Shown: positions 211 to 63,776 of the stretch, piece after piece
How positions within the stretch are numbered: position 1 is the first letter of the stretch
Layout of the letters: every line of letters begins with the position of its first letter
DNA from: Asterochloris sp. CNOR1
Taxonomy: Eukaryota > Chlorophyta > Trebouxiophyceae > Trebouxiales > Trebouxiaceae
Direction: 5' to 3'
DNA length: 64,000 bases
NCBI GenBank assembly: GCA_963969365.1
Contig: OZ017752.1
Location: forward strand, 2,852,001 to 2,916,000
Translations under genes and position numbers: made by a program
Notes under the pieces: generated by a model
What the model was told of the DNA's origin: nothing
Database searches by the model: none
Seen by the model: the letters and a program-made list of their open reading frames with translations, nothing else

Positions 211-3200
211 GGCCTGCGCACCGTGATCATCACTGACAGTGAGGAGTTGGGCACGCAGCACCTTCACGATGCTGCCAAGCACCGCGAGCTGTGGCTGTTC
301 TACCCTGATGACAACCCTGTCAGGTGGGCAGGGGCAGGGCGACCAAACTGGGTGCGGGGAGCCTGCAGGCTGTGGGGTGGGCAGGGCATGCAGCAGGAGG
401 CAGCCTGGCAGGCGCTCTGGGCAATCGCAGGCTGCCTTTGCGGGCCGCAAGGGAAACAACAGCAGTGGTTGGCCCCCTGCACTGTTTTCAAAGACCTGCG
501 CTGCATGCCGAAGCCCAGGCAGTGTACAGCAGACCTAGGCCAGGGGCCAACAGGCAGACTTGTCAGGCAGGCAGGGCAGCCCACAATGCAGCCTGCAATC
601 GTCAGCGGACAGACGGCCAGGGGGCATTGCTTTAACTGCATATGAAGGCTTTACTTCGTGAATGAAATTCATCTCGTGCTGTCGCGCCGGCCTAGCAGGG
701 CCACACTTGAGCCCTGCAAGTAGGGCTGCCTGGGAGGCAGCACTGTAGCCTGGAGGTAGTAGGAGCACTAACATTGTCTGAATGCCTGCAGGTCCCACTC
801 AACGCAGGCAGCAGCACCCCAGCGGGAGCAGGCAATGCCTCTTTCAGCATCTAAGACCTGCAGGTCTTGCTTTACAGAGAAGGGCCACCCCTGGACACAG
901 AGCATACAACTGCTTCCTGTATGCTCAAATACAACATTGATGGACCAGCCAGAGCTGAAAATTGCTTGTGCAGAGACATGTCCGGTGTACTTGCTGCTTG
1001 CAGGTCCTACCGCAATGGCAGGACAGTCACTCGCCCCCTGAGCCATGGCTGGGGCATCTGACAGCATAGCTTCTGCCTGCAGTTCAGGCCTGACTGGTCA
1101 CAACACGATGTCCACTGTTGCCTGAGGCCATCGGGTTGACTAAATGCACAGCCGCTGGCTGCAGATCTCACCCAGCAGGTGATGAAACACTCCTTGGTCC
1201 CCATCTGGAAGAGCCTCTGCTGTGACAAGTCATGTGAGGCCAGCACTGCTACCGCCTGCAGGTCCTACCTAGCCGGTGATAGCAGAGCAGCCGTGGCCCC
1301 CTTCCTGGCTCATGCCAGACTGCACCATGACAGCTACAAGTGGATGCTGTTTGGCGACGACGACACCGTTTTCTTCATTGACAACATAGCCGACTTCCTC
1401 AGCGACTTCGACCCGCAGATCCCCTACTTTATCTCTGGTGCGCAGCCTGAGCCTCAGCTCTGCAGGCTGCTGCACTCCTGAGCAGGACTGCGGGCGCCTA
1501 TGCCAATGCACGAACTCCTGAGCAGCTTTAGTGCCTGATACAAGCACTCTAGTGCCCTGTCGTGCAATGTGCTGTCGCAAGCTGCCCTTCAAGCAGTGCC
1601 CGTCATCACACATGGTGCATTGCCAGAGCATGACTTCGATCGGGTGGGCGAGGTGTCTGTCACCATGTGGCCAAACTGGTGTTCGCGCAGTGCCGTGTGG
1701 GTTCATGCCCTGCCTGCCATTGCAACTGGTGACCTGCCAGAACTCAGGCAGGTATGATTCTCCTCATCAACTGAGCAAGCTGGTGTGTGATGTGAGGTGC
1801 TGGACGTCTTGGAGGCTAGCTTTTGCAGTTGCTGCTGGATGTCAAGGGATTTTACAATGCAATATCTGGGCTCCATGACTCTGGCGCCCACCCTGGAGTA
1901 GCCTGTTGTGTTGACTGATGCAGAAATGATGTTAACTGCAGGCACCAGGAGGGCAGGGACTCCTGCTGCATCTGCTGGTGGCAGCGCTCTGAGAGTTGGG
2001 TGTCCTGCTCTGCCTGCAGACAACAACTGGTGGTCGGATCATGGGCACCAGGTAGACAAGGGGTTCCACCCCCACCCATTCTCCCCACGCTGCCGTCCTT
2101 GCCATTCCAACCTCACAGACGACGACATCCTGAGGGACTACAAGCCCCCTGTGGGCTGCCCCTGCACGCCCTACCTGCTCTGCCTGAACGACCTGCAGCT
2201 GGGGTTCAACGCCTGGTGAGCCTGAGCTGTGTTGTGGAGCTGGCTTTCATCTGGTAAATCGGAGGCACCTGGGTGCACATGGGCTGCCCACACCCACCCC
2301 AACTGCTATGCCTGATGCGACCTGCAGCTGTGGTTCAGTGACAGTGAGCCCTCAGATGTTTGTTGGCATTCCTTGTTCCTTTTGTATCATACAGCAGTCG
2401 GGCGCCTATAGGGGCCGCTCCTGCATGACTTGCCTGCTTTACCTGAGTAACTGCAGCTGGGGTTTAGTGCCTGGTATTTCTTGCTGTTAGGTTGGCAGTG
2501 GCTCTCCATGTGTGATGTTGAGAGGGAGCTGGGTGCCTGTAGAGTTCCCTGCATGCCCTACCTGATTCGCCTGGACAATCTGCTGCTGGACATCCATGTC
2601 TGATGAGTGCTATCTGGGGGTGGTGGCGCACCTATGTGGCCTTCTCATCGGGACCTGTTTGTGCACCCAGCAGTGCAGACTGAGGATTCGAAGTGACTTG
2701 ACTGCAGGTGCGACATGCCGCGAGTGCCCTTTAGGTCCTACAGCTTCCATGGAGGCGCCGGGGCCATCCTCAGCGTAGGGCTGCTCAACGCAGTTAACTA
2801 CACTGAGCTGGAGATGTGCGTCCACGCCACGAAGGCACCAGGTCAGCCACTGCCTGCTGCTGTGCATTACCTGGCAGCTCGTGTGGGCATCTGCAGGAGG
2901 TGGCAGCTGGCCAGGCAGGGATTCTCCTGCTCAGCACCCCCCTTGCTGTCCCTGTGGCAGCGCCGCGCCCTGCACTGACACAGCATCCTCTGCTTGCTTT
3001 ATGCTGCCTTGTACTGTTGGAGGGGCCCTCAGGCAGAGCTCAAGCTGCTCAGCTTATTGCTGCACGCTGCCCGCTGCCCGCTGACCTAAAGAAAGGTCAA
3101 ATCTTATTTGCCTCATGCCAGCCTCCCACCATAGATGCTGCAGCACCCATGCGTGCAGTACCTGCGCATCAGAGGCTGAAAGGCCCATCTGCTGCTGGTG

Positions 3201-6075
3201 CTGGCAAGGCACATGGGTAGGAGGCAGCCATGCTTCTCACAGGCCACAGGGAGCGGTGGCATAGTATCTGCAGTCAGGTGTGCAGCTCCCCAGCCCTCAA
3301 GAAAATGTGACTTGTGCCCTGCAGGTGGTGACTCCATGCTTCAGGTTTGCCTCTGGCAGCAGGGCTTTGCAACGACAGACCCAGGGATGGGCCTGACAGA
3401 TACAAACATCCAGATGTTTGACCCTGGCACAGAGGACCGCCAGGGGCTCATGCGGGGATGGGCTGCTGCCATGGAGGGCCGCTGCGACGCAGCCTGCCAG
3501 GTGAGCACAGCTTCTGGCCCATCGCTCAGAGCCGATGCACATAAGTGCATGAAGCAGCCTCCGTGACACTGACGCAGGTTGTCTCTGTGACTTTGCATGT
3601 GCTGAACCTCTGGCGCCATGCTGAAGACAGGGGCACTCCACATGACAGGCTTACTCAGTGTGTGCATTGCTTGCCCTGCAGGGGAAGCTCAAGCACACCC
3701 TGACGCTGCATCTCAAGTCGAGCGCCTTTGAGGTGCTGGGGTGGGCAGCAGAGTACATGAGGGCCCTCAGCCGCATGTACACGGCCTACAGGGCTTGGGT
3801 GAAGGACAATGTGAGTCTGCTGCATGCTGCTCACTTTGACGCCCTTAGAGGCATTTGAGAGCCATTGCACCACCTTGGGTGATCGCCTGTGAGTCTGCTG
3901 CATAAAATTGTTGACAGTTAAGCAGCATTGCACCCACCTCTGACCCTGCTGTGCCCTGTGTGCTAACAGTGACATGCTGAACGGGAACAGAGCCCCTAGT
4001 GCCGAGGCATTATGCGGCAGGTCTGTCGCAGCAAAGCAATCCTCCTGGGCGTCCCAGCTTTCACTGAGAACTGCCCCACTCTCTCTGACGTGAACAGCAT
4101 TGGAAGACAGCTCCAGTGCATCTGGCCTGCCAACAGCACGTCCCTGTGCTTTTGCTGAAAGGCCTGGTGCTGCAGGCGGTGATGAGTCCCAAGGACGTGG
4201 AGGCCCGCAAGGTTGCCAGGGACGCCAGCAAGGCTGAATTCACAGCCAAGGGAGTGCAGGTCAGCACCTTGCAAGTGATCGGGACTGTCCAGCTGGTTGC
4301 ACTGCTACTGCCACACCCGACATGGTTCAAATCCGCCGAGGTGCAGGTCAGCGCGTGGCAGTTATGCAGAATTGCCGTGCTGGATGCACCGCTTCTGTCA
4401 CGCCCGAGACCATTCATAGCCGCGTCAGGTGAGTGCCTGGCAAGTGAACAGCACTGCCGTACTGGATGCGTACCGCTTGTGCCATGCCTGTTACCATTCA
4501 TAGCGCCGGGGGGTCAGGTGAGTGCCTCGCAAGTGAACAGGATTGCCCAGCTAGATGCGTACCCCTTCTGCCATGCCTGTTACAATTCAGAGCCCAGGGG
4601 GTGCAGGTCAGTGCATGGCAACTAAATAGAGTTGCTCAGCTGGACATGTCATTCTTGCTCTGCCCCCAAATGTAAGACCGCTAAGGGGGTGCAGGCTTGG
4701 CTAGAGTTGCTTTGCAACCAACACTGAGCATCAGCCCTGCTCTCCCCTGGCCTCTGCTGATGGTCGGTATCATCAACGCTGCTGGCCGTGGCCATGACTG
4801 GAACTTCCTCGCCAAGCTTCAGACCAGCGCTGCCTGGCTTGGAAAGGCGCACAGCGTGTGATGCGAGTTATATTAGCAAAGGTTGACTGTCAGGTCTCTG
4901 TCGCAGACTGGGTCAGCCTGTAAAGCAGAGGAGCCTGCTCAGGCGTGGTCCTGCAGTGCACAAGGCATGCAAGGTCGACGTAAAGTCCCCGTCCACAACC
5001 AAATCCCCATCTAAGCTCTCTGTTGCTGCAGGGACCTCCTGTAGACGCTCAGCTCTGTGCCAACCTGACAATCAGTTCAGGTGTTCAGTGGTGCAGGCAT
5101 GGGCAACACAAGTAGTGATTCTCCTCGAGTGCTGTTCAGGCATGGCTGGATGCTGCGGGCGATGCACTGGCATGGGAGCAGCAGCGGCGCGACCAGTGGG
5201 CAGCCATGTCCCTCGAGCAGCGGGAGGAGCTGCGAGCCAGCCAGTGGAGCCAGATGCGGGCAGAGCAGCAGGCACGGCCACTTGCGGGGGGCAGCGCTGC
5301 CCTGGCACAGCCCCAGCATGCGGGGTGAGGGCGGTGTTGCCACTGCTGGGGTTGCAAAGGGCAAAGGGGTTGCACCACATCAGGCATGGGCGCTGGCAGG
5401 GAACAGTGCCTCTGTCGCGCAGGCTCAGCATCCAGACTGGGGGTGGAGCGGGGCACGGCGGTTGTTTGCACAGGGAAGGGGCGGGCCAGCAATCTGGGCT
5501 GCTGCCCCATTTGACTCAGTGCCAGCATGCAGTGTGAGGGCAGTCCTGTTGTGACTGGTCTGCATGACATGAAGGGGGCTGCAGCAGCAGGCAGGGGGCA
5601 GCACTGCCATGGAAGTGGCACATCATGCAGGCTGGGGGAGGTTGTGCTGCTGCTCATTCTGCAGCTAGGTGAAGTGGGGGTGCTTCAAGAGACCTGCGTT
5701 CAGCCCGCGAGGTGCAGCCGCTGGCAGGGGCAGCAATGCTGCCATGAGTCAGGCCAAGCATGCAAAATCTGGCCTGCACAGCACGGCACTGGGTAGGGGT
5801 GACATCTAAGTTTCGCCCTGAGCGTGGAATGCTGAATGTGGAGTAAAACCTGCACCATAGAGGTTGCTGGCCCTCTGCCACTGCTTCATGTTGTAGCCTT
5901 CTGCAGTCAAGCCTGTCTCCTTCTTGAGCTATTCTGTCTGCTGCTTGCAGGGGAAGCGCCAACACATGACTTCCCTGCGACCAACCCCTGTGACATGGCG
6001 GTGCTGCCCGCTCAGCGCTGGACCTCACGGCCTTTCATTCCCTGCCAAGTTGCATTGGTGCTCACACAGCCTTAA
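211..6075 (+). CDS. Fringe/DUF604-like glycosyltransferase (GT31-like), 5' partial
   Basis: Phase-matched exons: 211-323, 1262-1437, 2020-2215, 2708-2841, 3325-3500, 3682-3810, 4176-4259, 5140-5324; a likely terminal exon is 5951-6075 (TAA). The protein carries YKWMLFGDDDTVFFIDN, the DDD metal-binding motif of Fringe-type glycosyltransferases, then GGAGAILS and a Met/Leu-rich segment with GFATTDPG, as in plant DUF604 proteins. By family it should be a Golgi type-II enzyme transferring a sugar from a nucleotide-sugar; substrate unknown. The 5140-5324 exon is Gln/Arg-rich (LEQREELRASQW) and looks like a C-terminal extension. The splice phase from 5324 into 5951 does not close, so one small exon is missing or the 3' end is mis-assigned. 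The signal-anchor exon would lie before the window. Introns hold three separate arrays of junction repeats. Confidence 0.72.
785..1270 (+). repeat. Acceptor-junction echoes upstream of glycosyltransferase exon 1262
   Basis: The acceptor of the DDD exon reads cctgcag|gtcctacc at 1255-1269. Near-copies stand at about 785-800 (cctgcaggtcccac), 857-870 (acctgcaggtcttgc) and 994-1015 (cttgcaggtcctaccgcaa). The copy at 994 matches eight exon bases after the AG. Only the last site joins in frame to the previous exon and yields RSYLAGDSRAAVAPFLAHA. Confidence 0.6.
2200..2605 (+). repeat. Donor-junction echoes, about 124-bp period
   Basis: The end of exon 2020-2215 (gcctgaacgacctgcagctg ... gcctg|gtgag) recurs in degraded form at about 2312-2360, 2436-2480 and 2560-2605, a spacing near 124 bp. 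The first copies keep 'cctgcagctgtggttcagtg' and 'ctgcagctggggtttagtgc'. The later copies lose the GT donor. Confidence 0.6.
4250..4700 (+). repeat. 87-bp tandem array seeded by a splice donor
   Basis: Exon 4176-4259 ends gtgcag|gtcagc. The motif gtgcaggtcag/gtcaggtgagtg repeats at 4254, 4341, 4424, 4513, 4601 and 4689, a period of 83-89 bp. Shared interior blocks include 'gcaagtgaacag', 'ggatgcgtacc' and 'ccatgcctgttac'. Most copies retain a usable GTCAGC/GTGAGT donor. The authentic exon is the first copy, because its reading frame joins the exon at 5140. Confidence 0.8.
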
Positions 6076-6298: not shown

Positions 6299-9200
6299 TC
6301 ACAGCTCGTCCCTCGTATTATGCTGCAAAGACTCCAGCAAGTAGGAGTAGAGGGAGGCTGTTGCCAGGGCAACGTCTGGGCCATCCACATGCTCCAGCGG
6401 AGAGTGGCTGACACCGTCCCGGCACCGCACAAACAGCATGCCCACCTGCACAGACATCATGCATGTTGTTCAGGCATGTGCGCCAGGAAGATCACCATGC
6501 ATGCAAACATGCAGGATTGGGAGGGATGACTGCCTTGTGCAAGTACAGGCAGGGGTAGTCATAAGTCAGCTGCAGGCTATGGCATGTCTGCCTCCTTGAG
6601 GCACCATTCTGGCAACATATAATTTGCAGGTGCAGCTGTGGACCTATAAGTCCAGGCCATCATGCCCTGTATTGGCTTGCAACAGCATACATTGCCAAGA
6701 CTCGTACAAAGGCCCTGAGGTATAGAAGCAAAGCACATCTGAGATATGAGTCTGACCTTGGTAAGCTTGGAAAGAGGCATGGCATCGTGCCCTGCCCCAC
6801 TGGCAAGTGTTGGAACTTCCTCTGCAGGGTTGCTGTCAAGCTGCAGCGCCTGCACTTGACATTTTGCTTCCGGTGTGCAGCCACTAGATTAGGTTGCTAA
6901 GGAAGTAGCTTGGACTTAAGCAGGAGACTGTTACCAAGCTGCAGCACCTGCTGCTCAGCATCACTCTTCCCTACAAATTCATGGTGCAGCGGCCGCACAG
7001 CAGAGGTTGGCTGCAAGCTGGTCTCGAGCTTCCTACAGCATGAGTACTGGCCCCTTCGTGGTGCAGACCTGCTGTCAGGCTCTGAAACTGCTTGACAACG
7101 CAGAACTAGGGGACTGCTGGAAGCAGCAATTGGACTGCATCACAGTGCAGTCCACACACCTTGTAAGCCTGCTGTGAGGCCTTCTGAAACTGCTTGACAA
7201 TGGCTGGGTCTGCCAGCACTGTTGCGGTCTGCTGGATGACGTCAGCAGTGCACTGCACGCCGCGCCTTGCGCACAGGGCTGGCACGGCCTCAAGGAAGCT
7301 CCGCACCACTGCAGCTCGCACATCCTCCTCTTGTGACCTGCAGACCAGAAGGCAGCAGGATGTTGGACCTCAGTATGACTTGTGGGAGGTTAAGCAGTAT
7401 TCACTCTTCCACTTCAGCCCGTCGCGATGTCCCTCATGGGACCTGCACAGCTGAGATATGTTTTTGCCACAGCAAGATGTGTCCTTTGCAGGACATTTTG
7501 CTGAAGATGGTCAGCGCAGCAGCGACCTACCTGTCTTCACAACAATGCTTGCCTTTTGCCTGCCAGTTTCAGCCATTTGTATTCACATGACAATAACTGC
7601 AGCTGTCCATGGACAGGGACAGCTGCTGCCTTGGCATCAACAGTGAGGCTGGCCCAGGGATGGAGTTGACGGCCTCCAGAGTCAGAGTGAGTCTGTGGTC
7701 AACAAACTTGAAACAACAAACATGCCTGCTCCTGGACAGCAGCACGTGCTGACCTGATGTCCACAGTGAAGTTGGCAGCGCCAGGGATGACGTTGCTGGC
7801 CCCTGGCCACAACGTGAGCTGCCCCACCGTGCAGACCAGGCTGCCATCGCTCTTGGCATCTGCCGGGACCCCGTCAGCAGCCTGGCCGCTCAGGTAGCCC
7901 CCGTTGCAACGCTTCTCGAGGGTGCCCATGGCCTCGGCGGCAGCGGCCAGGGGGTCGTGCCGCAGGCGCATCGGGATGGTGCCAGCGTGGCCCTGTACCA
8001 GCAGGACAGCTTCAGGAACGCTGCAAATCCTGCACAGACCTGCGAAGGGATCATGAGCGGCGGCGATTGAGGCGCAGGACCTCAGAGCTTGTGCTGCAGG
8101 CGCATTGGGATGGGCTGTTGTGCCAGGGCCTTGCCAGCATAGCCCTGCAACAGTGGCAAGGCCCCAGCATCACGGCGCTCTGCAGAATTCAGTGTCACCC
8201 ATTACGCGGGTGCCAGTCAGGATGTCTGCCATCACGCCCAGCAGCAGTGACATCGGGAATGAAAACAGCCCTGCATGGCCACCTGGTTTACAATGCTGTG
8301 CTGCCCTTGCACAGCCCCTGTCAAGCACGTCCGCTGCCCACCTGAGTGCCCCGCATTGTCACATGGATCCGCATCTGCCCAGCAATGGCCGACACAGCTC
8401 CCAGCGGCTGCCCAGCAGCCTCAAGCACTGGTCCCTGTTCCAGATGCACCTCCAGATACTGCTTCACCTGCAAGACAATGCACAACCATTCCTTTGCTTT
8501 CCAAGGGCTTGACTGCTGTTGCAAGCGCAGCTTTCCCCTCCAGATACTCCTCCAGACAATGTTTTCAAAGGAAGTGCCTAGCTTCTTGGTGCACTCCAGG
8601 ACTCAAGTGGCTGGCATGGCTTGTGTCAGCCTTGTTCACCACCACCTATCGTCTTCCCCTCTGCAGGCTGACAGGAATGCACGACACCTTGCAATTGAGT
8701 CTCCAGGGCTTGAGCATGGCTATGTAAGACCCGCAACCCTTCAGCTGCAGATTTTTGTACCTATCGACTCGCACCACGAGAGCCAGTTCTTGAGGGCAAG
8801 ACGGTGGTGCAGAGGTGCAGCGCACGTCATGCCCGCTGCATACCTGCCGACAGAATGCAGGTGCAGGCGCACCTCCATTGCCTGCTAACATGCATGATGG
8901 CCTTAGCAAAAGCAGCGACTCAGGGTGATCAAGCTCTGCATATGGGCCAGCGATCAGTGGGCCTGCAACTGCCCAGCAGTGCAGCAAGCAATGCTGCTCT
9001 GCATGCACAAATAAACATCATTTGCAGACCCAGCTGCACAAGCGCAGGCAGCAGCCCCTGCAGCTACATGTAGACCGCCACCTTGTGCTGAGCGTGCAAG
9101 CAATCCTCGTGTATGCTGCCCAAACCTGGCTCATACGTCATTGCTGCAGATGAACACAACGCTGTTTGTCCACAAGCACCACTGCAGAGTACCAAACAAA

Positions 9201-11886
9201 CATCTGCCGGCTTGGAAAGCCTGAGGAAGCATACCTGACTGGAAGCGAATGCTAGTTTCTTCAGGCTTGCATCAGATGCGTCCAGGCCGTGCTGCTTGAG
9301 CACGTCGCCCACTGCCAGGCCGTCGACATCACGGCTGACCAGCCTGTCTGACCCCACCAGGGTTCCTGCCACTGCAGAGCTGCCCAGGAAGGTTGTCCCA
9401 AACCTGCACAGGCATGCAGGGGACAGGTGCTTGGGTCTGCATGGCTTCTCACATCAACAAATACATGGCTTCCCTCTGGCAGACATGAGCCAGCCTGCGC
9501 AGCTTGCCCAGGCAGCTGGACGGTCAATTCAGCTTCAGGGCTCATGACACTCTCAGGCCCATACTGCCACAGGCTTTGACCACCAGTCTTCCAAGCTTGT
9601 CACTCAGTAGCAGCTGTAATGACAATACGAGCTGCCCTTCCTGGCTCTGACGGATGCGCACTATTGCTCCCTGTAGCCTGAACCCTCCAGCTCGTATGAG
9701 GACAACCTGCTGCTCTGCAAGAGTTGACTGCCCTGGCCCACTGCTCCACCACAAGCCGCTTTACATCAGGCGGTCTGGTTGGTTCAGGCAGTCCAGTGGC
9801 AGCTCAACTGGTGAAAGCAGCTCAGCTGGCAGAGTCAGCTGGCCTGCCAGCGCACGACACTGCCCATCACTGATAAAACCCACGATCCATTCCATGACAG
9901 CAAGTATACCACAGTGATGGCATGGTCAGCGGGCCTGCCAGCGCCTCAAGCTCACATCACAGCTCCCGGATAGCTGCAATGATACTGTTAACTCCGGGCA
10001 GCTCAGCAATGCACCGTTGTACTGCAGCTCACCTAACACCCTCCTCCTCTGAGAAGGCTATGAGCTCAACAGGGCTGGGCAGGAGCTTGCCAGCCTCAGG
10101 CACCAGATCCCCCAGGCTCTTGCTCCCATCCAGCAGCTGTTGCAAGCCCTGCTGGGTCAGCTTTCCAGCATCTGCTGCAGCCTGCTGGGCAGTAAAGGTC
10201 AAAGGTTGCGACTGTCAGGGATGGCCCTGGATGGTGGCAGTACAGCGGCTGTCCTCCAGACAGACGTGGGCCTCCCAGCCAGGCTCAGGCCATCTGTAAT
10301 GCTGCAGCAAAGCATTAGCAGCTCTGCCTGGCTGCTGCCGGCCCAATGCTGGTGGCCCCAGCAGGAGCATGACAGAGGCCTGGCACAGCACACACTGTCA
10401 GCAGATGCGCCTTTCCAAGGGCCGCCTGCTAGAAGCACAAACACTGCCAGCCAGGCAGCATGCCAGCCAGCAAACAGTGCAGGCAGGCAGGCCCTGCCTG
10501 ACTGGGCCACCAGCCCTGCAAGCACTCTCAGACGAGATTGCAGCAAACCATGGCGCTTAAACCTCGACAAGCAGCCCTCTAAAGCAGCTAGCCCCAAGAG
10601 CAGAGGTACTGTATTGCATCTCGCCGCAAGAGGACTAGTCACTTGTGGGCCGGCCCTTGGAGCATCTGGCAATGCAGTATTGGGGTGCACCTTGGTTGCC
10701 ATGCAGCCCAGCATCTCCTCACGGCCTGAGGTGACATGTCGCACACAGCATGGTGACTGGCATCCACCATCCTTTTGAAAGCATGCCAGCATTTGAGCAT
10801 CCCTGCCTACACAAGCACCCCCTCCAGTGCGGCCGACCCCACAACAGTACCAGAGCAGCGTTCATGACAAAACAAAGCACTGCTGCAGAGCCCCTGCCAG
10901 CAGGACTGAGCACTGTCCTGTCTGACGCAGCCTCACACCGCACAGGGTACCTTGCCTGCCACACACAAGATGAGCAGCGCCCCTCTTGCTGGGCATGCCA
11001 GAAGTGCGACGTTCATCCCAAGGGGTGCGGCAGCTGACCTGCACCAGCAGCCCCTCCAGCGCTGCCAGCCCCACGATGATCCCCAGGGCGCCGTCAAACT
11101 TGCCCGCGTCCCTCACGGTGTCGTAGTGGGACCCCAGCAGCACAGCGGGCTCTCCTGGGTGCGCCCCGTCTGCGCGGCCGTGCACATTGCCCACACCGTC
11201 CTTCCAAGTGCGCAGGCCTGCCGCGCTGAACCATGTTTCCAGCTGCACGGGTATGAGAGGCAGCATCAGTTGCAGACTGTGACTGGAACCCGTAAGGTGG
11301 GGCCTTCCAGATGCATAGGCTGGCTGCCATGGTGTGGCATGCAGGCTGCAACGACAGCAGCGGCAACGTCTGATGTAGGCTGTGACCCGCACCCACATGG
11401 AGGGACGCACACCTTCCTTCTTAGGTGTGCAAGCATGGTGCAGCAACTGGTCTTTAAGCTGTACATGTAGGAATGCAAATATGGGGAGTGCCCGCTAGGC
11501 AGCCCAGGAGGGGAGGCCGGCAGTGCACTGTTTGGAAGCATGAGAAGCGTGAAGTGCTGCAGCTGATGCTTCGTGCAAGACGAAAGGTGCCTCCAATTGG
11601 CTTGTGTTGATGCACATGCAGTCCTGCTGAATACAAACAGGTCAGGCCTTGGTCCAGAACGTATGCTTGAGGGTGTGGTTTGCAGGACTTGCATTGTCTG
11701 AACCAAGTGCCAGGTTGCAGGTACAGTCAGGCTGAGCAACACATCAGGCTGCATTCAACAGCATTCTGCCGAGGTGACCTGTGTTGCTGCCTTTTGGTGA
11801 GCAGGGCTGTAGAAGGTTCGCTCCAGGGAGTCAGACTTGTCACTGATCTGTAGAGGCAGCATTGCATACGTCTCAGGCCGGTGCAT
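6299..11886 (-). CDS. AAH: Allantoate amidohydrolase / ureidoglycolate amidohydrolase family (M20)
   Basis: Nine exons join with closed phase into 467 residues: 11886-11779, 11242-11039, 10181-10033, 9403-9235, 8467-8342, 7992-7754, 7337-7160, 6840-6757, 6445-6299. Dinuclear-metal motifs of the family are intact: GSHYDTVRDAGKFDGALG, the Glu pair in SEEEGVRF, LEVHLEQGPVLE, GHAGTIPMRLRHDP, SGAGHDAM and GVSHSPLEHV. RTWKDGVGNVHGR resembles plant allantoate amidohydrolase, but ureidoglycolate amidohydrolase is a close paralogue and cannot be excluded. Role: release of ammonium from purine-derived ureides. The chain ends HNTRDEL, an ER-retrieval-type tail, yet the first Met (after an in-frame stop) is not followed by an obvious signal peptide, so a targeting exon may be missing. 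It shares a 339-bp divergent promoter with the next gene. Confidence 0.92.
7955..8150 (-). repeat. Acceptor-junction echo beside amidohydrolase exon 7992
   Basis: Plus-strand text at 7964-8000 (caggcgcatcgggatggtgc, then ggccctgtaccag) recurs diverged at 8098-8150 (caggcgcattgggatgggct, then agccctgcaacag). On the minus strand this is the acceptor plus about 35 bases of the GHAGTIPMRL exon. The copy lies in the intron upstream. Confidence 0.55.
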
Positions 11887-52200: not shown

Positions 52201-54426
52201 TGCCCCTTACAATGTTGAGGAAGGTTGGCAGTCATGCCGCCACTGTATGCAGGCAGCATGGACGGTGTGCCTGCAAAGCCCTCTGGGGAAGGCTACATTC
52301 GCATAGCTCGCCTGCTGAATGATAGCAGGTGGTACATGGATGGCAGTGCATCCTGCCAAGTGGGGAAACTTGTGCAGAACTTCATTTGGTAGGTCCTCCG
52401 CCAGGAGCTCTAGGTCTGCATGCCCTTCGCCGTCCCCGCTGCCTGCCTGTACCCCCTTTGCTGCATGCAGGGCAGGCAACAGGATCAGTTGTGAGACACG
52501 ATGATGGGGGGACCAGGTATCACTTTGCATGTTTGCACCATCCTTGCTGCAGGCAGGGTGAGGGCGGCTGTGCGACACGGCTGGGCGTGGCCTGCACGTT
52601 CCCTGAAACACGGCTGGGCGTGGCCTGCACTTCCCTGGGAACGTGCAGTGCAGGTGACAGGTCAGTGAGGAGCCTTCGAGAGGAAGCAGGGGAGAGACGT
52701 GGGACAGTGGTGCTGTGTTTTCCTAAGTAGGGTCCCAGGTGAGGTGTGTTTGATGGATGAAGCGACCTGCTGTGGGGCCATGCCATCACTCAAATAGCTC
52801 AAAGCCGCATGAAAGCTGTTGCAGCTGTTTGACCTTCATGGAACCAAATGAAAGGGGCACATGACATTGCTGGGCAGCTTGACAATCTTGGAGTCAGCAG
52901 ATTGACAGGAAGAAAGCAAGGCCGTGGGGCCGATCTGCACCTGCAGTCTCCAAGACGCCGCTGCGGCTCCAGTGCAGCGCAAATCTGACAGGCCCATCAT
53001 GCCAGGTGGTGCTGGTTCGCCAAGCTATGACGTCCTTCCTCACCCTGCACAGCACGGCTCTGAGACCAGTCAGGGTTTTTTGAGCCTTTCTCAGCACCCA
53101 GCAGGGACAGACGAGAGATCATGCTGCGTCAGGCTTCATGTACCTGCATGCTGGCACATCTGCTGCAGCGGAAGCTGCACCAACCTCATCCACGCCAAAT
53201 GGGATCAACCCTACAGCATGTGCCCCTGGAGGTGCAAGACTGCCGGCCTGCCACCCACCAACGATGTAGAATAGGCTCAAGTGCCCAGCAGACGTTGCAG
53301 CTGCACCCAGAACAGCTTCAGTGCAGGCTGCAAGCGTACACTGCTCTCCATGTGCCATACATATTGCTCAGTCCCCTGGGAAGCTCAGCAGCTGCAGCGC
53401 ACAGCTCACCAGTGAGCATAGGATCTGCTCAGGTCCCCAGCAAAGGCAGTCTCAGGGTCAGGTTCGCTGTACAACACCTCCTTGCTGCCTGACAGCAGCC
53501 ACACCTCCCGCACGTCTGTTGAGATCTCCACTATCTCCCCGCCAGCATCCTTCTCATCCCCTGACAACACAGGAACGCCTTGATGTGGCTTGAAAGCTCA
53601 GCAGAGGGCAGATAATGCATCAACTACAGCCCGCGAGGCCCCTACACTGGCAGAGACACCTTGATGCGGCTTGACAGGTTATCAGAGGGCAGAGTAAGCT
53701 TTAAGTACAGCCCGTAGGGCCAACACAGTAGCGCAGGGGATGTAAGTGCAGGCCGCCCCAAGGAAACTAGCATGTGATGGGCTGCATACAGAATAAGTCT
53801 GGTGCAGGGCTGCACACGCCGGTGAATTTGGACCTGCAGAGATGCCGACAGTATGCCAGGAGAGCAGCAACAGAGAGGGAGCCTGTGTGTCAGCTCCAAC
53901 ATGCTGTGCTGTGCTGAGGCTCAGCTGAAGTGATAGATTGGGCAACACAGAGCTCCCCTGGAAATTGCACTGCAGCAACGTTGCTTGCACTGGCGCACCT
54001 TTATGTACAATGAGCCCAACCCAGTGAGAGTAGCCATTTTTCTGGTGGTCTGGGCACAGCTGCACATCAAATGTAGCCTCCTGACGGTGCACCCTGCATC
54101 ACAGCTCCAGCCCTGTCTGCAGAGTGCAGGAGGCAAAGCCTGCATGACAGAGCACGGCAGGGACTGTTCACAAGCACACAGCTCACGTCGTGGGATGTAA
54201 AGGGGCTCCCCATGGGGTTGGCTGCTGCACTTCATGCCAGGCATGTAGCCCCCAATCCTGCAAAAGACAGGGCCCCTGTTGTAATTGACATGTATGCATG
54301 CAAACTGTGCAGCAGTCTCACCTTTGCTGACCCCTCCTTGCGTAGGTAATGCACACGGATGTACCTCCCCTCCACTTGTGCTGGCGGTGCTCCTGATGCC
54401 GCACATGCATTGATCTCCATCCTCAT
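43243..54426 (-). CDS. PUL: Pullulanase / limit dextrinase (GH13_13 starch debranching enzyme)
   Basis: About two dozen exons, starting 54426-54322, 54257-54187, 54093-53999, 53560-53410, 53044-52941 and ending 44120-44009, 43694-43556, 43364-43243. N-terminal CBM41-like strands: [37 protein letters not shown]. Then [12 protein letters not shown]-type text ([12 protein letters not shown]), [39 protein letters not shown] (region I), [12 protein letters not shown] (nucleophile Asp), [11 protein letters not shown] (acid/base Glu), [13 protein letters not shown] (stabilising Asp) and [26 protein letters not shown]. It hydrolyses alpha-1,6 branches in plastid starch. All catalytic residues are present. 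VDGFRFD lies on a 38-nt exon (47723-47686). The intron 46808-47037 uses a GC donor. No transit peptide is visible after Met 54426, so an upstream exon may exist. Confidence 0.95.
46130..46275. repeat. Imperfect tandem duplication in pullulanase intron
   Basis: 'cgcaagcccactggcctgca' with flanks (about 46191) recurs as 'tgcaagcctactggcctgtc' (about 46252), a spacing of about 61 bp, between exons ending near 46397 and starting near 46048. Confidence 0.6.
52575..52642. repeat. 33-bp tandem duplication in pullulanase intron
   Basis: cacggctgggcgtggcctgc plus acgttccctga is followed directly by cacggctgggcgtggcctgc plus acttccctgg. Nearly identical copies, so probably recent. Confidence 0.85.
53575..53735. 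repeat. 85-bp tandem duplication in pullulanase intron
   Basis: ccttgatgtggcttgaaagc ... cagagggcag ... tacagcccgcgaggccc at 53579-53642 recurs at 53660-53722 as ccttgatgcggcttgacagg ... cagagggcag ... tacagcccgtagggcc. It lies in the intron between exons 54093-53999 and 53560-53410. Confidence 0.8.
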
Positions 54427-55197: not shown

Positions 55198-58100
55198 ATG
55201 CCAGCCCTGTCAGCACCTCTGAACATTGCAGACATGAAGTGGCAGCAGATCCTGGCGCTGCATGAGACGCACACCAAGAAGCAGGTGACCTCTCCTGCTG
55301 CTGTTGGCACAGCACATGAGCATTGTAAATGCGCCACACACTGTAGTCCCTTTCTAAGATTGCCTCTCATTGCATTGCCCTATGTGCTGTAGCCCTGTTC
55401 CAGTCTGCCTCTAGGCATTTGCTCACTATTCAGGTGCACAGCCTTTGCTGAGGGCCTGCTGCAGGCAATTCAAGCCTGCTGGCAGTTTGTGTTGCTCGCA
55501 ACAGCAGGACCTATACACCTGCCTCTGGATATCTCCATCAGGCTGTCGCAGTCAGCTCTCCTGCTGCACGCCAACCCCCAATACTGGATTGTTAGCCCAT
55601 GCAAAGGAGGCACAGGTCGTTGCAGTATTTCCACTACAGGTGGTAGCTGTAAGCCGCCTCAAGTCTCCACTCTGTCGTGTGGGCTGTGGCCCAGTCTCAA
55701 GACCTATGAGTCCTACCTTGGGGGTGCTAAATTTTTCAGGCGTGTGTCTTCATGCTGCCAGGGTTCTGTGTAACTTGTCCTGCTAACACTGCGACCTCTG
55801 CTGCTGCAGGCAGATGACCTGAACGGGGCAGACCTGGCCACGCCCATGTGCGTACTCTTTCTGACATCATGTGTGTTTTGCCCTGCTGATGCCATAATCT
55901 CTGCTGATGCAGGCCGCCACCCCGGCAGGGTCACTGCTCACCCGTCCAGGCGCAGACCTTGCCGAGTCTGAGTATGTCAGGGCGGTCAAGCTGGGCAATC
56001 AAGCGAGCCGGCTGGCGCGAGACGAGCAGCAGGATCTCGTCAATCACCCCCTGTGGCGCCTGACCTGTGGGGCTCTGACTGCTGGCCTGTACCTTGCCCA
56101 CTGTGTAGCTGGCACTCTGCAGCCCAGGTAAGCACACAGACCGTCAACATGACAATTGCACCCTGTAGTGCTTGGGCTCCCAGGAAGAAAGAAGATAGCA
56201 GTGCAGTCTGGCCATGTATGCTGCCAGTGTTGGTTTGACATGCTGCACTAAAAGCAAGTCAAAGAAGGTCAGACCAGCTCATGCTGCATCAAGACGCTGG
56301 ATGGCCAGGAACTAGGAGAGCTTGCACAGGACTGGCACAGCAGCCCCTGAAGGCGGCTGCAGCCTTCACTGCCCTGCCACCTCCCACTGCTGGATGCCCA
56401 ACTGAAAGCTCATTGGCCCTGCTGCAGTGTCAAGGAGAGCTTTGCCTCAAGTGGAACCGCTGCAGCCCCTGCAGGCGCCAGCAGCCCTCAGCGCCCTGCC
56501 TCTCCCCTGGACGGCGTAGCCATTGCTGATGGTGACCGGCCCACACGGGAAGCTACGGCTCACAGTGCCCTGGCAGCCCAGACAGGGGAGCAGCCCCGCC
56601 TGACTGAGCAGGAGGTGGGTCCACTGAGATGGATTGTTCACCAGGCTGGGTTATGCAGCTGGCATGCTGCATGCAACCTGCTGAATGGAAAGCACTTGAC
56701 AACTCACAGAGGACATTGACAAGTGGGGTGGACATCTCTCATTGTCTTAGTCGGCATGTAATGCAGCCTGTGGCGTAGCAACTGCCAGCAAAGCAGCTAC
56801 GCTCAGAACCAACTCAAGCAAGGCTCTTACAGGCCAAGAAGAGTCATGAGAAGCCAGCAGCATACTCCTCAATCTGGCAGAATAGCCTGGTGTTGCAGGC
56901 AGAGATGATTTTACAGGCCCCAAGAGAGCAAAGCATTGGGTTGCATATGTTCGGCAAGACGTGACTCTGCATCCTGCAGGCGGCGGTGGGTCTGGTGTAA
57001 GGGCTCAATAGAGAAAGAGACATGAGAATGCTGTGAGGTGCGTATCTGCTTCCTGCAGGCCAAGGTTACGGCTGCGGCCAATTCTCTCAAGGAACAGGGG
57101 AATGCGGCCTACAAGGCCAAGAAGTACTCAGAGGCCTTTGCCTTCTACCATGCCTCGGCGGAGCTCTGGGACCGGGATGTCGCAGTTGTCACCAACATGT
57201 GAGCTGCTCCTGTGCTTGGCCGCTGGATGCACCCGAGCCTGATGTCATCAACATGTGAGCTGCCACTGCTCTTGCCTCTGGTTTGATTGGAGCCTGAGGG
57301 GTCAAGCACTTGCCTGCCACGATGCCGCGAGCGACAGTGGCAACCAGGACATCTGTGTTTCAAAAAGGTGCAGAGGCTGCAGCCGCAGTCACACTCAGCA
57401 TTTCATGCATGCACAGAGTGCTTGAGATAGCCCCTTGTGGCTGCAAGGCGCTTACTTGCTAAAATTCCGCCCATCTTGTTGCTTACAGATGTGTGACATT
57501 ACTGCAAGGATGCTCAATGCACCTGCAGGGCGGCAGTCATGTTCCAGCTCAGGAACTTCAGCGACTGTGTTGACTTCTGTGACATCGCACTCACGAGGGG
57601 GCCTGGCCTCGCAGCGGCGCCGCAGCTGCTGGCAAGGGCTGCCACCCGCAAGGAGAAGGCACTTGTGGAGCTGAGGAGGCCCCAGGAGGCGCTAGGCGCC
57701 TTGCAGAGGAGCCTAGACTTGCAGTGGTGAGTTACGGGTGCAGCCCTCGAGGGTTTGAGGGCACACCCCAGCAGCAGATGCTTTGTTGTGGGGGGCTGCA
57801 GGCAGGCAGGCTTGCAAGGTTTCACTGCTGTGCTGGCTGCTGGCCAGGCTCAGAGTGCAACCTTCAATATGCGTGCTCTCTCCGCATTGGTGAGGCAGCT
57901 GAAAGTGGCAGCCTGTGGGCAGCAGTGCTGCTGTGAGTGGCTGCTGGGCGCTCTGTGCAGGGCTGTCATGCGTTGATGGCCCCAGCGGAGGCTCCGATGC
58001 GTTGCTGACTGCCTTGCTGGCTGCGCAGCCCTCAGTCGCTGAGGGGTCCTTGGCTGCAATCTCACGCACTCTGGAGATGCCTGAAAGGCAAGCAGCACAA

Positions 58101-60037: not shown

Positions 60038-63000
60038 TCAGACAGTGGCCAGCTTCCTGAATTTGATGCGGGAGGGATCTTTGTTACCAGACCTCTGCCG
60101 CCAGTCTGCTTCATACTCACTGTAGCTGCCATCAAACCAATGCACTTTGCTGTCGCCCTCAAAAGCTAAGATGTGGGTGGCCAGTCGGTCAAGGAACCAC
60201 CTACAGGCAACAGCAGCAAGACTGTATGCGACTCACTGCAGGCAACAGGCCTCAAGCAACTAGGTAAAGTGCACAATCTTGGCAGATCTGGCTGCAGCTC
60301 AATATCAGGGGTGCAGGCCAAGCACCAGCACACCTGTCATGAGAGATCACAAGCACGGTCCCTGCCCAGTTTGAGATGGCCTCCTCCAGAGCTCTGAGCG
60401 TCTGCAGGGACAAGAATCTGCCTCAGCATTGCAGTATGGCTTCTTATTATGGCAGCAGACAATGCTGTCCAATTCATGCTATGATGTTGACAAGCTTGAC
60501 GGCTCACCTGAACATCAAGATCATTCCTGCAGCGCAGAGACGCAAACTAAGGGGTAGCTCAGCAGACTGGGTGATGGTTGTGTGTGAGCTGGGCCTGACA
60601 AGCAGTGGTGCAACGTCAGCTTGCATCTTATGGCATCAAGCGTGACTCACGTGGGCTCGTCTAGAAGCAGGAGGTTGCCGGACTGCTTCAGCACCTGCAG
60701 CACCACTTGCGACTCAAGACAAGCCTCAACCGTCAAGCAGCTGGCAGTGGTGGTTGCCAGACCCCAGACGGCAGCAGGTTGTCCCTGCAGTGTTGTCAAT
60801 GACAGGAACCTGCCGCCACATCACAGGCAGAAACCAGGCAAGAGCATGGCAGTGAGCCCACGGCTGCAGCGCTTGGCCCACCATTACAAGGTGCCACAAG
60901 TTGAGCGGCCTGTCAGACCGGAGATGATGCGCCACGATGCCCAGGCCTCAGCATTGCTGTACGCTCAGCCCACCTTGGCAAGGTGAAGCCTGTTGCGCTC
61001 GCCGCCAGAGAGCACCTCAACCTTCTTCTGCTGATCTGCTCCTGTGAAGTTATACCTGCATCATCAAAAAAACAGGGACACCTTGCACTGGGGGTGGTGC
61101 AGGCTCCAAAAGAAGTAATGTGTGCAGCACGAGTCCTATGTGTCAGCTGCCCATCAGTTTGATTTAGCTGCCAAGCAGCCAGTAGCACAGATGAAGGTGT
61201 AGGGCCCTGAGTAGCAACCTTCTGCCAGGCTGTCGCCTGCTCAAGACTGACCCCACAATCTGCCAAAAGCCTGGGTCTCCACATAATGGTGGAGCCGCTG
61301 CTGGTCAGCTCGCTGCTTGTTGTTTGCCAGCACTGAAAGAGCAACTCTTGCAAGATCTGACAGACTCACCAGGAGCAGTACTGCCTGATGTTGACAATCC
61401 GTTTGCCAATCTGAATTTCTTCCGCGCCATCTGCAATCTCGTCAACCACCAACCTGCAGCAGTAGCAGTGCACCACCTCAGGTTAAGCACTCTTTCCTGG
61501 TCACTGCTTGCAGTTGGCAAGAAGCACAGTGGCACTCTTCAGTGCGCTGGAGCACATATTCTGTATCTGTGCCACCACCTTCTGTGTTTGTCTTTGATTT
61601 GCAGGCTTGATGCAGCAGGCAGCAGACTGCCATTCACATGGACGGGACAGTGGACGCACCGCCAGACCTGCTGTTGGCTTGCAGGAAGCCAGAAAGCAAC
61701 TTGGTTTCAGTAGGAGGCTGACCATCCTTCTTGCAAAGCAGACAAAGCTTCACCTGCTGCCGTCTCCAAGGCTGCCGCGACTCTGATCAACATACATGGG
61801 TACGACTGTCTCGCCCAGCGTGACTGTGCCGGAGTCGGGTTGTTCCTGGCCCATCAGCATCCTGAAGAGGGTAGACTTGCCAGCACCATTGCTACCGATG
61901 ATGCCTGCACCCAGGGAAATATCAAGGTGGACTGGCTGCCAGCAGGGTATGATAGTGCTCTCCATGGCATTCCAGAAGCTGATCAGGCTGCATCTGCAGC
62001 GTCAACAGCCAGAGACCAGCGGGAAATGCAGGTCTCTGGTGATGCAAATGCAGCACTGCCATCTGAGGCTGCCATCCTGCAGCTGCTTGCCCCACATGAC
62101 TGTCCTGACACAAGCTCAGCAAGCATGCTGCCAGCAGAAACCAGCCAAGAACTCCATGCGCTCTGCATGGCAGTCTCACACCTCATCCAGGATCTCCTGC
62201 TCCAGCTCATCCATGAGGAGGCTGTGCTAGGGCTGTGTGCTGACAGACTGGGGTGCCCAGATGATGAGCGTGTCCATGAGCAGGTACACAGGCAGTGCAG
62301 CACCTCACCCTGCCTGATACCATCCACAGCATCACCATCAGCACAACTCACCCACGACGCTGCCAGCCGGGATATCCAGGTTGACCTGGTCCATGAGCAG
62401 GCGGTCGCCGTAGGACTTGCACACGCTGTCGAGGTGGATTACCTCATTTCCCAGGCGCGGCCCCTGGGGGATGGTGATCGAATCCAGGGATGAGTTCTCC
62501 TCAAACTGGGCAGCCTGCACACGCGGAGCAGGCGGCATGACAGACTGTGTGGCACTGTGCAAGGCCCAAAAGATCAGAGCAGGCAGGCTGTCTCTGCAGG
62601 CAGTTCGTGGGATGTTGTGGGATGACGATTCTGAGGATGTGGTTCCACAGATTGACGATGGCGGTTAGGGGTGCAAGGTCTTGACTGGGAGGCCTGCAGG
62701 TAGGCAGCCATTGATGGCAGGAGAGAAGGGTGATAATCCGACAAGGGGGGGAGCAACCGCCAGATGCTGCCCCACACCATTTGCTACTGACCTGCTCAGT
62801 GAGGTGTTAAAGCGCACCATGCGCCGAAGACTCTCTAAGGCATTCACATTGAGGACTTTTACCACTCCCCAGACGCAGCAATGACCCTACTCAGCCACCC
62901 AGAGGATCTCACAGTGCCGCATGTGCTCCAGACTCTATCAGGCATTCAGCTTAAGGATCTTCACCACTCCTCAGTAGCAGTGACCCAACACTGCCACTCA

Positions 63001-63776
63001 CCTGCTCAGTGAGGTCTTCGTAGCGCCGCATGCGAGCCTTGCCCTTCTTTTGCTGCCCCTTGGCATTGGAGCGCACCCACTCCAGCTCGTTGGCAAGGCT
63101 CCTCTGCAGGGAGGCCTGCTGGCGGGACTCTGACTGCAAGCAGAGCAGCTAGGTGTCGGATCGCTGACAGTCTGAGCTGCAACTGGTACATGATGGCTGG
63201 CATGCTTCTGTAGCCGATGTCAGCCGGGAGAGCTTTGCGATAGGATGTGCTGCATGCAGCAGCACTGCTGCCTAGGGGTGTAGTGGGAGCTTGTAGGCGT
63301 GTGCTCCTGCTTTTCAATTTCCGGCATACAGAGCCGTGGGTGGGCTGGGGCTGGAAGTGCAGGGGTGTTTCTCCAGATGATGGTGCTGCTTGATGTGGCC
63401 TGTGCAGTATGCAGCAGCACAGCTTCTCACAGGACTGACTGGCAAGCATGACCAGCTGCTTGTGCTGCTGCTTCTGCCAAGCCAGCAGTTGCAAAGGCTG
63501 CCTGCTGTTGTGCTCTGCCTCATGCAGAAGGCATCGGCGCTCTCTGTTTGCTACAATGACTAGCACCAAAGCCCCTGATGCAGAGCAAGACCTAGCACTG
63601 CTGGCCAGGCAGGTACGAAAGCTCCCCCCTCTTGGTGCGCAATGTCAGCGGGGTACCCTTTCTCTCCCTTCTCTTTGTACCAACAAAAGGAAGCAGAAGC
63701 TGAATGCCCACCTCCATGCGCTTTGCCTTGGCCTCCAGCCAGGAGCTGTAGTTGCCCTCATGTGGCAGGCCCTGAC
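60038..63776 (-). CDS. ettA: EttA-like ABC-F ATPase (translation factor), N-terminus outside window
   Basis: Ten phase-closed exons: 63776-63712, 63133-63002, 62514-62352, 61904-61754, 61453-61370, 61055-60974, 60694-60651, 60526-60508, 60401-60334, 60200-60038. They cover the end of ABC domain 1 and all of domain 2: [16 protein letters not shown] linker, [31 protein letters not shown] (Walker A), [13 protein letters not shown] (signature), [13 protein letters not shown] (Walker B) and [15 protein letters not shown] (H-switch), ending KFRKLATV. This order and wording match bacterial EttA, which gates the ribosomal E site according to ATP/ADP. In an alga it is probably plastid-targeted, which cannot be judged without the N-terminus. 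The Walker B and NDLDV residues are split over 44- and 19-nt exons. Confidence 0.95.
62205..62425 (-). repeat. Echoes of an ABC-F exon segment in its downstream intron
   Basis: Plus text ggtccatgagcaggcggtcg (inside exon 62514-62352) has look-alikes at about 62271 (gtgtccatgagcaggtacac) and 62208 (ctcatccatgaggaggctgt), about 62-118 bp away in the next intron. Confidence 0.5.
62785..63030 (-). repeat. Donor-junction echoes, about 105-bp period, in the ABC-F gene
   Basis: The donor of exon 63133-63002 (plus cactcacctgctcagtgagg, then tcttcgtagcgccgcatgcg) is echoed at about 62788-62830 (gacctgctcagtgaggtgtt, then aaagcgcaccatgcgcc) and 62885-62925 (cctactcagccacccagagg, then atctcacagtgccgcatg). 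Shared spacers 'aggcattcacattgaggact' and 'aggcattcagcttaaggatc' link the units. Confidence 0.8.

What the first reader, a model, noticed from the sequence alone, without database searches (positions are those of the whole stretch)
785..63030. Splice-junction 'echo' arrays: exon edges plus splice sites tandemly repeated into adjoining introns
In at least seven of the ten main genes, a block spanning an exon-intron boundary is repeated one to five times in the adjacent intron at about 55-170 bp spacing. Donor echoes lie downstream, acceptor echoes upstream, and divergence rises with distance from the real exon. Tandem duplication seeded at splice junctions would lengthen introns while leaving rows of decoy sites. 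I know of no standard element type that fits: these are neither introner elements (which insert whole introns) nor ordinary random minisatellites.
Basis: partly seen in the sequence, partly recalled or inferred. Interest (0 to 1): 0.82.

Follow-up and report, generated by a model that had tools for sequence, protein, structure and literature searches.

The report
Exon edges copied into neighbouring introns
In this stretch of what looks like green-alga DNA, the ends of exons together with their splice sites have been copied in tandem into the adjoining introns, sometimes several times, which lengthened the introns and left rows of splice-site look-alikes; the basic process is known from single cases, but here it is widespread.

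Summary
A test that compares each exon edge with its own intron, using the window's other exon edges as control (so shared splice consensus cannot explain it), finds echoes at 19 of 139 junctions (21 of 141 with two hand-added ones), where about 1% is expected; exon-only blocks still show 12 of 142. A gene-blind local scan (offsets 30-700 bp) finds 28 repeat pairs (shuffles: 0, 0, 1) in 18 families, all under 400 bp apart. Best explanation: recurrent tandem duplication of segments straddling exon edges, tolerated because the outer splice site can still yield the same mRNA, with the inner copies decaying. Junction blocks are echoed 2.2-2.3 times as often as intron-interior blocks; uniform-duplication simulations reach 2.05 in 1 of 180 runs, simulations with a 3-8-fold junction preference in 38 of 120. 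The placement excess is P 0.011 without hand-added exons and weakens further if detection favours exon edges, so the preference is tentative. Introners and AGGT intron birth are not supported. Single junction-crossing duplications, and tandem repeats crowded near intron ends, are already published; widespread serial exon-edge copying is a variant of that. No RNA, no genome, home-made gene models.

The parts
783..1308 (+). Acceptor echoes upstream of the real acceptor at 1261|1262 (fringe-like gene), copies near 783-823, 995-1084 and 1145-1208
   Evidence: (z 3.5), alignments
2152..2657 (+). Donor array: real donor 2215|2216, three echoes at offsets 128, 258, 387
   Evidence: E 8e-17; z 9.5
3762..3903 (+). 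Donor echo, real donor 3810|3811, echo at offset 78
   Evidence: (z 5.7)
4237..4695 (+). Donor array, real donor 4259|4260, five echoes about 87 nt apart; copies 2 and 3 most alike (0.82)
   Evidence: (TRF), (z 9.7)
5269..5654 (+). Donor echoes after exon end 5324 at offsets 112, about 205-209 and 307; this donor was not in the junction test
   Evidence: (three pairs)
7068..7200 (-). 33-nt exon segment starting 8 nt from exon end 7160, copied 100 nt away in the intron, 91% identical; does not itself cross the edge
7603..7818 (-). Donor echo of the M20 gene, exon edge at 7754
   Evidence: (z 6.6)
10299..11094 (-). Donor echoes of the M20 gene, exon edge at 11039
   Evidence: (z 5.2)
15261..15670 (+). 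Prx6 acceptor echoes: copies of acceptor plus exon start near 15344 and 15468 before the real acceptor 15658|15659
   Evidence: (E 9e-5); junction z only 2.0
22206..22534 (-). Decayed copy of a whole small exon (22399-22484, hand-added, weak support) with both splice sites, offset 172
31412..31741 (-). Acceptor array, exon edge 31437, echoes at 108, 214, 295 upstream
   Evidence: (z 11.8)
32365..32772 (-). Acceptor array, exon edge 32401, echoes at 193, 273, 360 upstream
   Evidence: (z 6.2)
34462..34801 (-). Acceptor 34513 and its 79% identical echo 278 nt upstream, which the gene finder took for an exon (34755-34791)
   Evidence: z 6.4
35193..35463 (-). Acceptor echoes, exon edge 35258, offsets 99 and 199
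   Evidence: (z 3.9)
37165..37371 (-). 99-nt tandem duplication across the donor of exon 37314-37361 (hand-added junction)
   Evidence: z 20.7
37640..38003 (-). Donor echoes, exon edge 37976, offsets 214 and 322
   Evidence: (z 6.4)
38075..38643 (-). Acceptor array, exon edge 38118, echoes at about 84, 265, 352, 468 upstream
   Evidence: (z 9.7)
39960..40190 (-). 90-nt tandem duplication across the acceptor at 40018 (hand-added junction)
   Evidence: z 15.7
40952..41395 (-). Acceptor array, exon edge 41030, echoes at 132, 229, 361 upstream
   Evidence: (z 7.8)
53038..53512 (-). Donor echoes, exon edge 53410, of the pullulanase-type gene
   Evidence: (z 3.9)
53575..53732 (-). 81-nt tandem duplication ending near the acceptor of exon end 53560; the aligned part stops 15 nt short of the exon
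56314..56596 (+). Acceptor echo of the TPR gene, acceptor 56427|56428, offset 119
   Evidence: junction z -0.2
57137..57380 (+). Donor echoes, real donor 57198|57199, offsets 56 and 171
   Evidence: (z 8.2)
62769..63034 (-). Donor echoes of the ABC-ATPase gene, exon edge 63002, offsets 107 and 210
   Evidence: E 6e-10; z 7.3

Best explanation
Introns of this genome lengthened by repeated tandem duplication of segments, mostly of about 55-140 bp, that straddle an exon edge. A duplication across a donor leaves the first donor next to the intact exon, and one across an acceptor leaves the last acceptor next to the intact exon; if splicing keeps using that outer site the mRNA is unchanged, so the insertion is tolerated. 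The inner copy, with exon scrap and a splice site, becomes intron and drifts. Repeats of the process give arrays. Shown: local tandem homology centred on junctions, its position on the intron side, its decay, survival of many strong decoy sites. Inferred: that the outer sites are the ones used, the order of events, and that the inner copies have no function. A further preference, several-fold, for junctions over intron interiors is favoured by the simulations but not proven.
For: Consensus-controlled permutation: 20 of 142 junction blocks at z>3 vs about 1.5 expected (two of these rest on model errors, corrected count 19 of 139). Local repeats: 28 real pairs vs 0, 0, 1 in shuffles; offsets 81-387 bp in a scan of 30-700 bp. 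Clear cases: 90-nt unit across acceptor 40018 and 99-nt unit across donor 37313. Pairs crossing an exon edge: 21 of 28 vs 11.7 expected with hand-added exons, 17 of 27 vs 11.1 without them, P 0.011. Homology is near background beyond 60 nt from the junction and is weaker in the intron half than in the exon half (0.648 vs 0.717 at 6-30 nt, P 0.005), as expected if the intron half drifts in both copies. Echo-bearing junctions have longer modelled introns. Junction/interior ratio 2.24 vs means of 1.10-1.35 in nine uniform settings, 2.05 or more in 1 of 180 runs.
Against: With one pair per family the edge excess is 12 of 18 vs 7.4 (P 0.017, hand-added exons included) and fades with an assumed detection bias of 1.4 (P 0.07), 2 (P 0.22) or 3 (P 0.51). 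Echoes for arrays were chosen by likeness to the exon, which inflates exon-echo identity. Junction dinucleotides are kept somewhat more often than other dinucleotides (31 of 44 vs 0.546, P 0.024), and echo-bearing donors are stronger than others (PWM 6.34, n 10, vs 4.76, n 60, P 0.002); pure drift predicts neither. Simulations with a 3-8-fold preference reach 2.05 in only 38 of 120 runs, so the size of any preference is poorly fixed. No RNA data; gene models are mine; species unknown; one 64-kb window.
Confidence: 0.72

Rival explanations
1. No special link to junctions: this genome has a high rate of roughly 100-bp tandem duplication everywhere in introns, original introns were about as short as one unit so most tolerated duplications had to cross an edge, and the conserved exon half keeps old edge copies detectable for longer.
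For: Random placement already gives about 11 of 27 pairs at edges, P 0.011 for the observed 17; with an assumed bias of 2 the family excess is not significant. Interior blocks are also echoed above chance (mean 8.5-9.25 of about 133-135 blocks vs about 1.4 expected). In 2 of 14 arrays the most similar pair is two inner copies.
Against: Forward simulations with these ingredients (start length 60-200, exon rate 0.05-0.35 of intron, intron indels) give mean junction/interior ratios of 1.10-1.35; 2.05 or more in 1 of 180 runs, observed 2.24-2.27.
Confidence: 0.37
2. The echoes are kept by selection as spare or regulatory splice sites (alternative 5' or 3' splicing, recursive or dual-specific AG|GT sites).
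For: 31 of 44 echoes keep the GT or AG vs 0.546 expected (P 0.024); 20 of 44 echo sites are as strong as typical real sites and 9 of 44 at least as strong as their own real site; in the 4259 array several echoes read AG|GT, like the dual-specific sites of PMC10809524.
Against: The retention signal is weak and alignments anchor on the common CTGCAG; exon halves of echoes are decayed; 13 of 44 had lost the aligned dinucleotide.
Confidence: 0.12
3. Introns were born here by AGGT-type tandem genomic duplication of exon sequence, and the echoes are the birth scar.
For: The donor array at 4259 has CAG|GT in several copies.
Against: The expected scar is absent on average: intron start vs downstream exon start z -0.08, intron end vs upstream exon end z 0.83, 55 introns; one of 55 introns has a high score (14 or more) in the second comparison.
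Confidence: 0.05
4. Artefact of generic splice consensus, low complexity or false gene models.
For: CTGCAG occurs 243 times vs 19.5 expected from base composition; two wrong gene-model features were found among the hits.
Against: The permutation uses other junctions' blocks as control; exon-only blocks still score (12 of 142 vs 1.5 expected); the gene-blind self-scan needs no gene models.
Confidence: 0.02

Closest known systems
Tandem duplication crossing an intron-exon boundary in a potato RdRp gene (Ma, Lan and Niu 2016, PMC4974935; part 1 of 5 of the text seen: abstract, introduction, start of methods)
   Same: A duplicated segment crosses an intron-exon boundary, with most splice signals inherited from the parent junction.
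   Different: A single case that made a new intron with a cryptic exonic donor; here 19 of 139 junctions are involved, often serially, and existing introns appear to lengthen without gaining a new one.
Internal tandem repeats at human exon-intron boundaries (De Grassi and Ciccarelli 2009, PMC2812944; passages seen, abstract among them)
   Same: Tandem repeats at exon-intron boundaries, coding-region units of 9-30 and 62-126 bp; copies can be spliced out.
   Different: Recent variable repeats in segmental duplications, with transcript support; here old, decayed copies, as far as seen in ordinary genes.
Tandem repeats crowded towards intron ends in plants and two green algae (PMC3887541; passages and one section seen)
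   Same: Enrichment of tandem repeats towards intron ends; [quoted passage not shown]
   Different: That survey counts repeat motifs by position within introns; the parts that I saw do not report copies of exon sequence.
Tandem genomic duplication model of intron gain (AGGT; review PMC3443670, passages seen; Hellsten 2011, Gao and Lynch 2009 and Zhuo 2007 known from citations in what I read and from recall only)
   Same: Short tandem duplication next to a splice site, mRNA kept unchanged.
   Different: Its scar (intron ends matching the opposite exon) is absent here on average.
Introner elements (PMC9860276; passages seen)
   Same: Change intron content of many genes of one genome.
   Different: Introners share sequence among unrelated introns; here copies match their own exon edge.
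Dual-specific splice sites in tandem arrays, polyubiquitin (PMC10809524; abstract and outline seen)
   Same: Tandem AG|GT sites that could act as donor or acceptor.
   Different: There the repeats are coding and the sites are used; here use is untested.

Membership tests
Junction-crossing tandem duplication | Repeat unit contains both exon and intron sequence of one splice junction, copies head to tail nearby | tested here: met
   21 of 28 local pairs straddle an exon edge with hand-added exons, 17 of 27 that meet the placement condition without them. Strict head-to-tail adjacency was seen only in some arrays.
Junction-crossing tandem duplication | mRNA unchanged because the outer splice site is used | not testable with these tools
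   No RNA reads; use of the outer sites is inferred from the gene models.
Introner elements | At least four introns of different genes share sequence up to near both splice boundaries (method of PMC9860276) | tested here: not met
   In this window 1 of 19 plus-strand self-hits at E<=0.01 is non-local; of 13 plus-strand non-local hits at E<=1 one is below 0.01; among 13 listed minus-strand hits one non-palindromic hit is below 0.01. The rest of the genome could not be searched.
AGGT tandem-duplication intron gain | Intron start resembles downstream exon start, intron end resembles upstream exon end | tested here: not met
   55 introns, z -0.08 and 0.83.
Ordinary intronic minisatellite | Array placed without regard to exon edges | tested here: inconclusive
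   Edge excess P 1e-4 by pairs with hand-added exons, 0.011 without, 0.017 by families, 0.07-0.51 with assumed detection bias of 1.4-3; 1 of 180 uniform simulations reaches a ratio of 2.05.
Dual-specific splice-site array | AG|GT sites in tandem | tested here: met
   Only for the array at 4237-4695; not examined as such elsewhere.
Dual-specific splice-site array | Sites are used both as donor and as acceptor | not testable with these tools
   No RNA data.

The most novel reading that the evidence does not exclude
Exon edges are mutational hot spots for tandem duplication in this lineage: the DNA at splice junctions is copied several-fold more often than intron interiors, so that introns grow mainly from their ends and much of an intron is the decayed remains of its own exon edges. 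This would be a distinct, splice-junction-linked route of intron lengthening, and each array would keep a record of successive events.
Probability: 0.27. Interest if true: 0.78.

Novelty: new variant of a known kind. Interest (0 to 1): 0.52.

Why it matters
Long introns are usually explained by transposon insertions (general knowledge, not from a call). Here at least a part of intron length comes from tandem copies of the exon's own edge, and the copies can in principle be dated and ordered. It also gives a natural set of strong decoy splice sites beside real ones, a direct test of how the spliceosome chooses the outer site, and it warns that gene finders can call echoes as exons (mine did: 34755-34791, 2328-2343 and 2457-2509).

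Tried and rejected
Plain self-training of a gene finder over-split the genes and was replaced by a seeded, stop-aware version with a higher intron cost. A first array-identity computation used untrimmed copies and is superseded. Introner rival: rejected in this window. AGGT intron birth: rejected on average. Echoes as compensation for weak splice sites: echo-bearing donors are stronger than others, acceptors no different. CTGCAG as a seed: 243 copies, but this is close to the expectation from its 5-mers (232); 7 of 9 acceptors with an echo carry it near the site against half of 62 others, too few to judge. Relatives: a peroxiredoxin query in viral contigs found 13 loci at 48-51% identity; a query from the hnRNP-Q-like gene found none in viral contigs and none confirmed in the prokaryote genome contigs. 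tRNA and Rfam (gathering threshold) scans of the window: 0 matches each. Literature: 9 library searches listed no paper whose title or abstract start describes repeated exon-edge copies across a genome; the library lacks most subscription papers. In the Coccomyxa genome paper (PMC3446292) the passages on introns and repeats did not mention it. I have an uncertain recollection that the Chlorella variabilis NC64A genome paper (2010) mentions exon-like repeats in introns; it is not held, so novelty must be read with that in mind.
Full report
WHAT THE WINDOW IS. The 64 kb are 54-60% G+C in 2-kb steps and carry intron-rich genes. No whole genome is held for it. I built gene models with a small self-trained gene finder (the models were used). 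Pfam supports most genes: an M20 amidohydrolase (dimerisation domain above its cut-off, peptidase domain just below), a glyoxalase-like protein and a 1-Cys peroxiredoxin, a pullulanase-type enzyme, an MFS transporter and an ABC ATPase are above a cut-off; a fringe-like glycosyltransferase and a TPR protein are just below; hnRNP-Q acidic-domain segments are one at and one below the cut-off; one of 9 proteins (the ~17-22 kb gene) had no match. Calling it a green alga rests on my reading of the gene set and splice style (recalled knowledge), not on a tool result. The minus-strand genes from 17.8 to 54.4 kb were merged into one model, but individual exons are usable.

ANATOMY. For donors the copy lies downstream, for acceptors upstream (the junction test searched only the adjoining intron). 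At the 24 echo-bearing junctions examined the nearest copy lies at 56-137 nt in 19 and at 191-278 nt in 5. Good examples: 2215 with three copies; 4259 with five; 31437 with three; 38118 with four. Two cases show the event plainly: a 90-nt unit across the acceptor at 40018 and a 99-nt unit across the donor at 37313. One family looks like a decayed copy of a whole small exon (22399-22484, weakly supported), and one supposed exon (34755-34791) is an echo of the next acceptor. Family 20355-20636 touches no exon that I could identify. Homology is strongest within 30 nt of the junction (exon side 0.717, intron side 0.648, random anchors 0.594 and 0.583; 44 echoes), weak at 30-60 nt (P 0.03 and 0.08) and not distinguishable from background at 60-90 nt. 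The lower identity on the intron side fits drift of both copies there. The 44 echoes were selected by their likeness.

DECOYS. At 44 examined echoes the splice dinucleotide is kept in 31; other dinucleotides of the same alignments are kept at 0.546 (P 0.024). Twenty of 44 echoes retain, within 3 nt, a site at or above the 25th percentile of real sites, against 0.034 (donor) and 0.023 (acceptor) strong sites per seven-position window in introns, and 9 of 44 equal or exceed their own real site. So rows of credible decoys exist; whether they are used is unknown.

IS THE JUNCTION SPECIAL. Three tests. (a) Random placement of the same pairs, requiring that at least one copy be essentially non-exonic. 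With three hand-added exons and one corrected exon end: 21 of 28 pairs cross an edge against 11.7 expected, P 1e-4 (one of the 21 does not itself meet the condition, without it 20 of 27 vs 11.3). Without hand-added exons: 17 of 27 vs 11.1, P 0.011 (uncorrected models: 16 of 26 vs 11.0, P 0.025). With only the best pair of each family: 12 of 18 vs 7.4, P 0.017, and 0.07, 0.22 or 0.51 if detection favours edge pairs by 1.4, 2 or 3. (b) Junction blocks are echoed at 19 of 139 junctions, interior blocks at a mean of 8.5; ratio 2.24, bootstrap 1.33-4.00 (with hand-added junctions 2.27, 1.40-3.74). (c) Forward simulations in which 55-140 nt duplications fall uniformly, are kept only if the mRNA is unchanged, and exons evolve more slowly: mean ratios 1.10-1.35 and 2.05 or more in 1 of 180 runs over nine uniform settings (a coarse earlier run is not counted). 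With a preference for junctions the means are 1.5-2.04; 2.05 or more is reached in 5 of 36 runs at 3-fold, 17 of 48 at 4-fold and 16 of 36 at 8-fold. Simulated echo counts ran from about half to twice the observed number, and the simulated z used 20-24 control blocks where the real one used all others. I conclude that uniform neutral duplication explains much but probably not all.

ORDER OF EVENTS. In 14 arrays the nearest copy is more like the exon than the farthest in 9 (P 0.087). The most similar pair is exon with nearest copy in 9, exon with another copy in 3, and two inner copies in 2 (4259: 0.82; 15658: 0.68). Exon-echo identity exceeds echo-echo identity in 13 of 14 (0.686 vs 0.613), but echoes were picked by likeness to the exon. 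Adjacent echoes are no more alike than non-adjacent ones (0.613, n 30; 0.602, n 23). So a strict outward gradient is not shown, and at least one internal duplication probably occurred.

RIVALS. Introners would give introns of different genes that resemble each other; only one of 19 self-hits is non-local. AGGT intron birth would make intron ends match the opposite exon; over 55 introns they do not on average. A regulatory role is weakly hinted at by the kept dinucleotides and by stronger donors at echo-bearing junctions (P 0.002), not shown.

PRIOR ART. A duplication crossing an intron-exon boundary is described in a potato gene (PMC4974935, part 1 of 5 read), human tandem repeats at exon-intron boundaries in PMC2812944 (passages), crowding of tandem repeats towards intron ends, with the highest intron densities in two green algae, in PMC3887541 (passages and one section), short direct repeats near splice sites in PMC11782384 (part 1 of 7: abstract and introduction), introners in PMC9860276 (passages), intron-gain models in PMC3443670 (passages), dual-specific sites in PMC10809524 (abstract and outline). 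The nine searches named in Tried and rejected listed no account of serial exon-edge copying as a general feature; one possibly relevant paper (C. variabilis genome) is not held.

VERDICT. A real, statistically solid pattern, best read as intron lengthening by junction-crossing tandem duplication. New, as far as I could search, in its frequency and serial form, not in kind. The claim that junctions are hot spots is plausible and testable, not established.

Noticed in passing
window 33095-33195: Long, nearly perfect hairpin inside a short predicted intron of the hnRNP-Q-like gene (DNA fold -31.4 kcal/mol, z -8.6); could be a foldback element or a small-RNA precursor.
   Followed up: partly
window 30300-30375: Second strong hairpin (DNA fold z -5.4) in a long stretch without strong predicted exons. 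A third self-complementary stretch, 3632-3726 around the acceptor at 3681, does not fold better than shuffles (z -0.2).
   Followed up: partly
whole window: CTGCAG occurs 243 times against 19.5 from base composition and 134 from dinucleotides, denser outside strong exons (4.2 vs 1.7 per kb); 41 copies sit at predicted acceptors of strong exons. It is the commonest 6-nt palindrome of the window.
   Followed up: partly
window 15768: The Prx6 exon appears to end at a GC donor (CAG|GCAAGG); the gene finder missed it. The argument rests on recalled Prx6 protein sequences.
   Followed up: partly
window 15792-15988: Short-unit minisatellites (42-nt unit 97% matched, 18-nt unit 85%) in an intron, unlike the long-unit echoes.
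   Followed up: no
window 49657-49731 and 60820-60896: The only plus-strand non-local repeat pair below E 0.01 (72% over 78 nt, 11 kb apart).
   Followed up: no
window about 31-43 kb: Gene with at least two hnRNP-Q acidic-domain-like segments (one at and one below the Pfam cut-off) and the largest number of echo-bearing junctions in the window.
   Followed up: no
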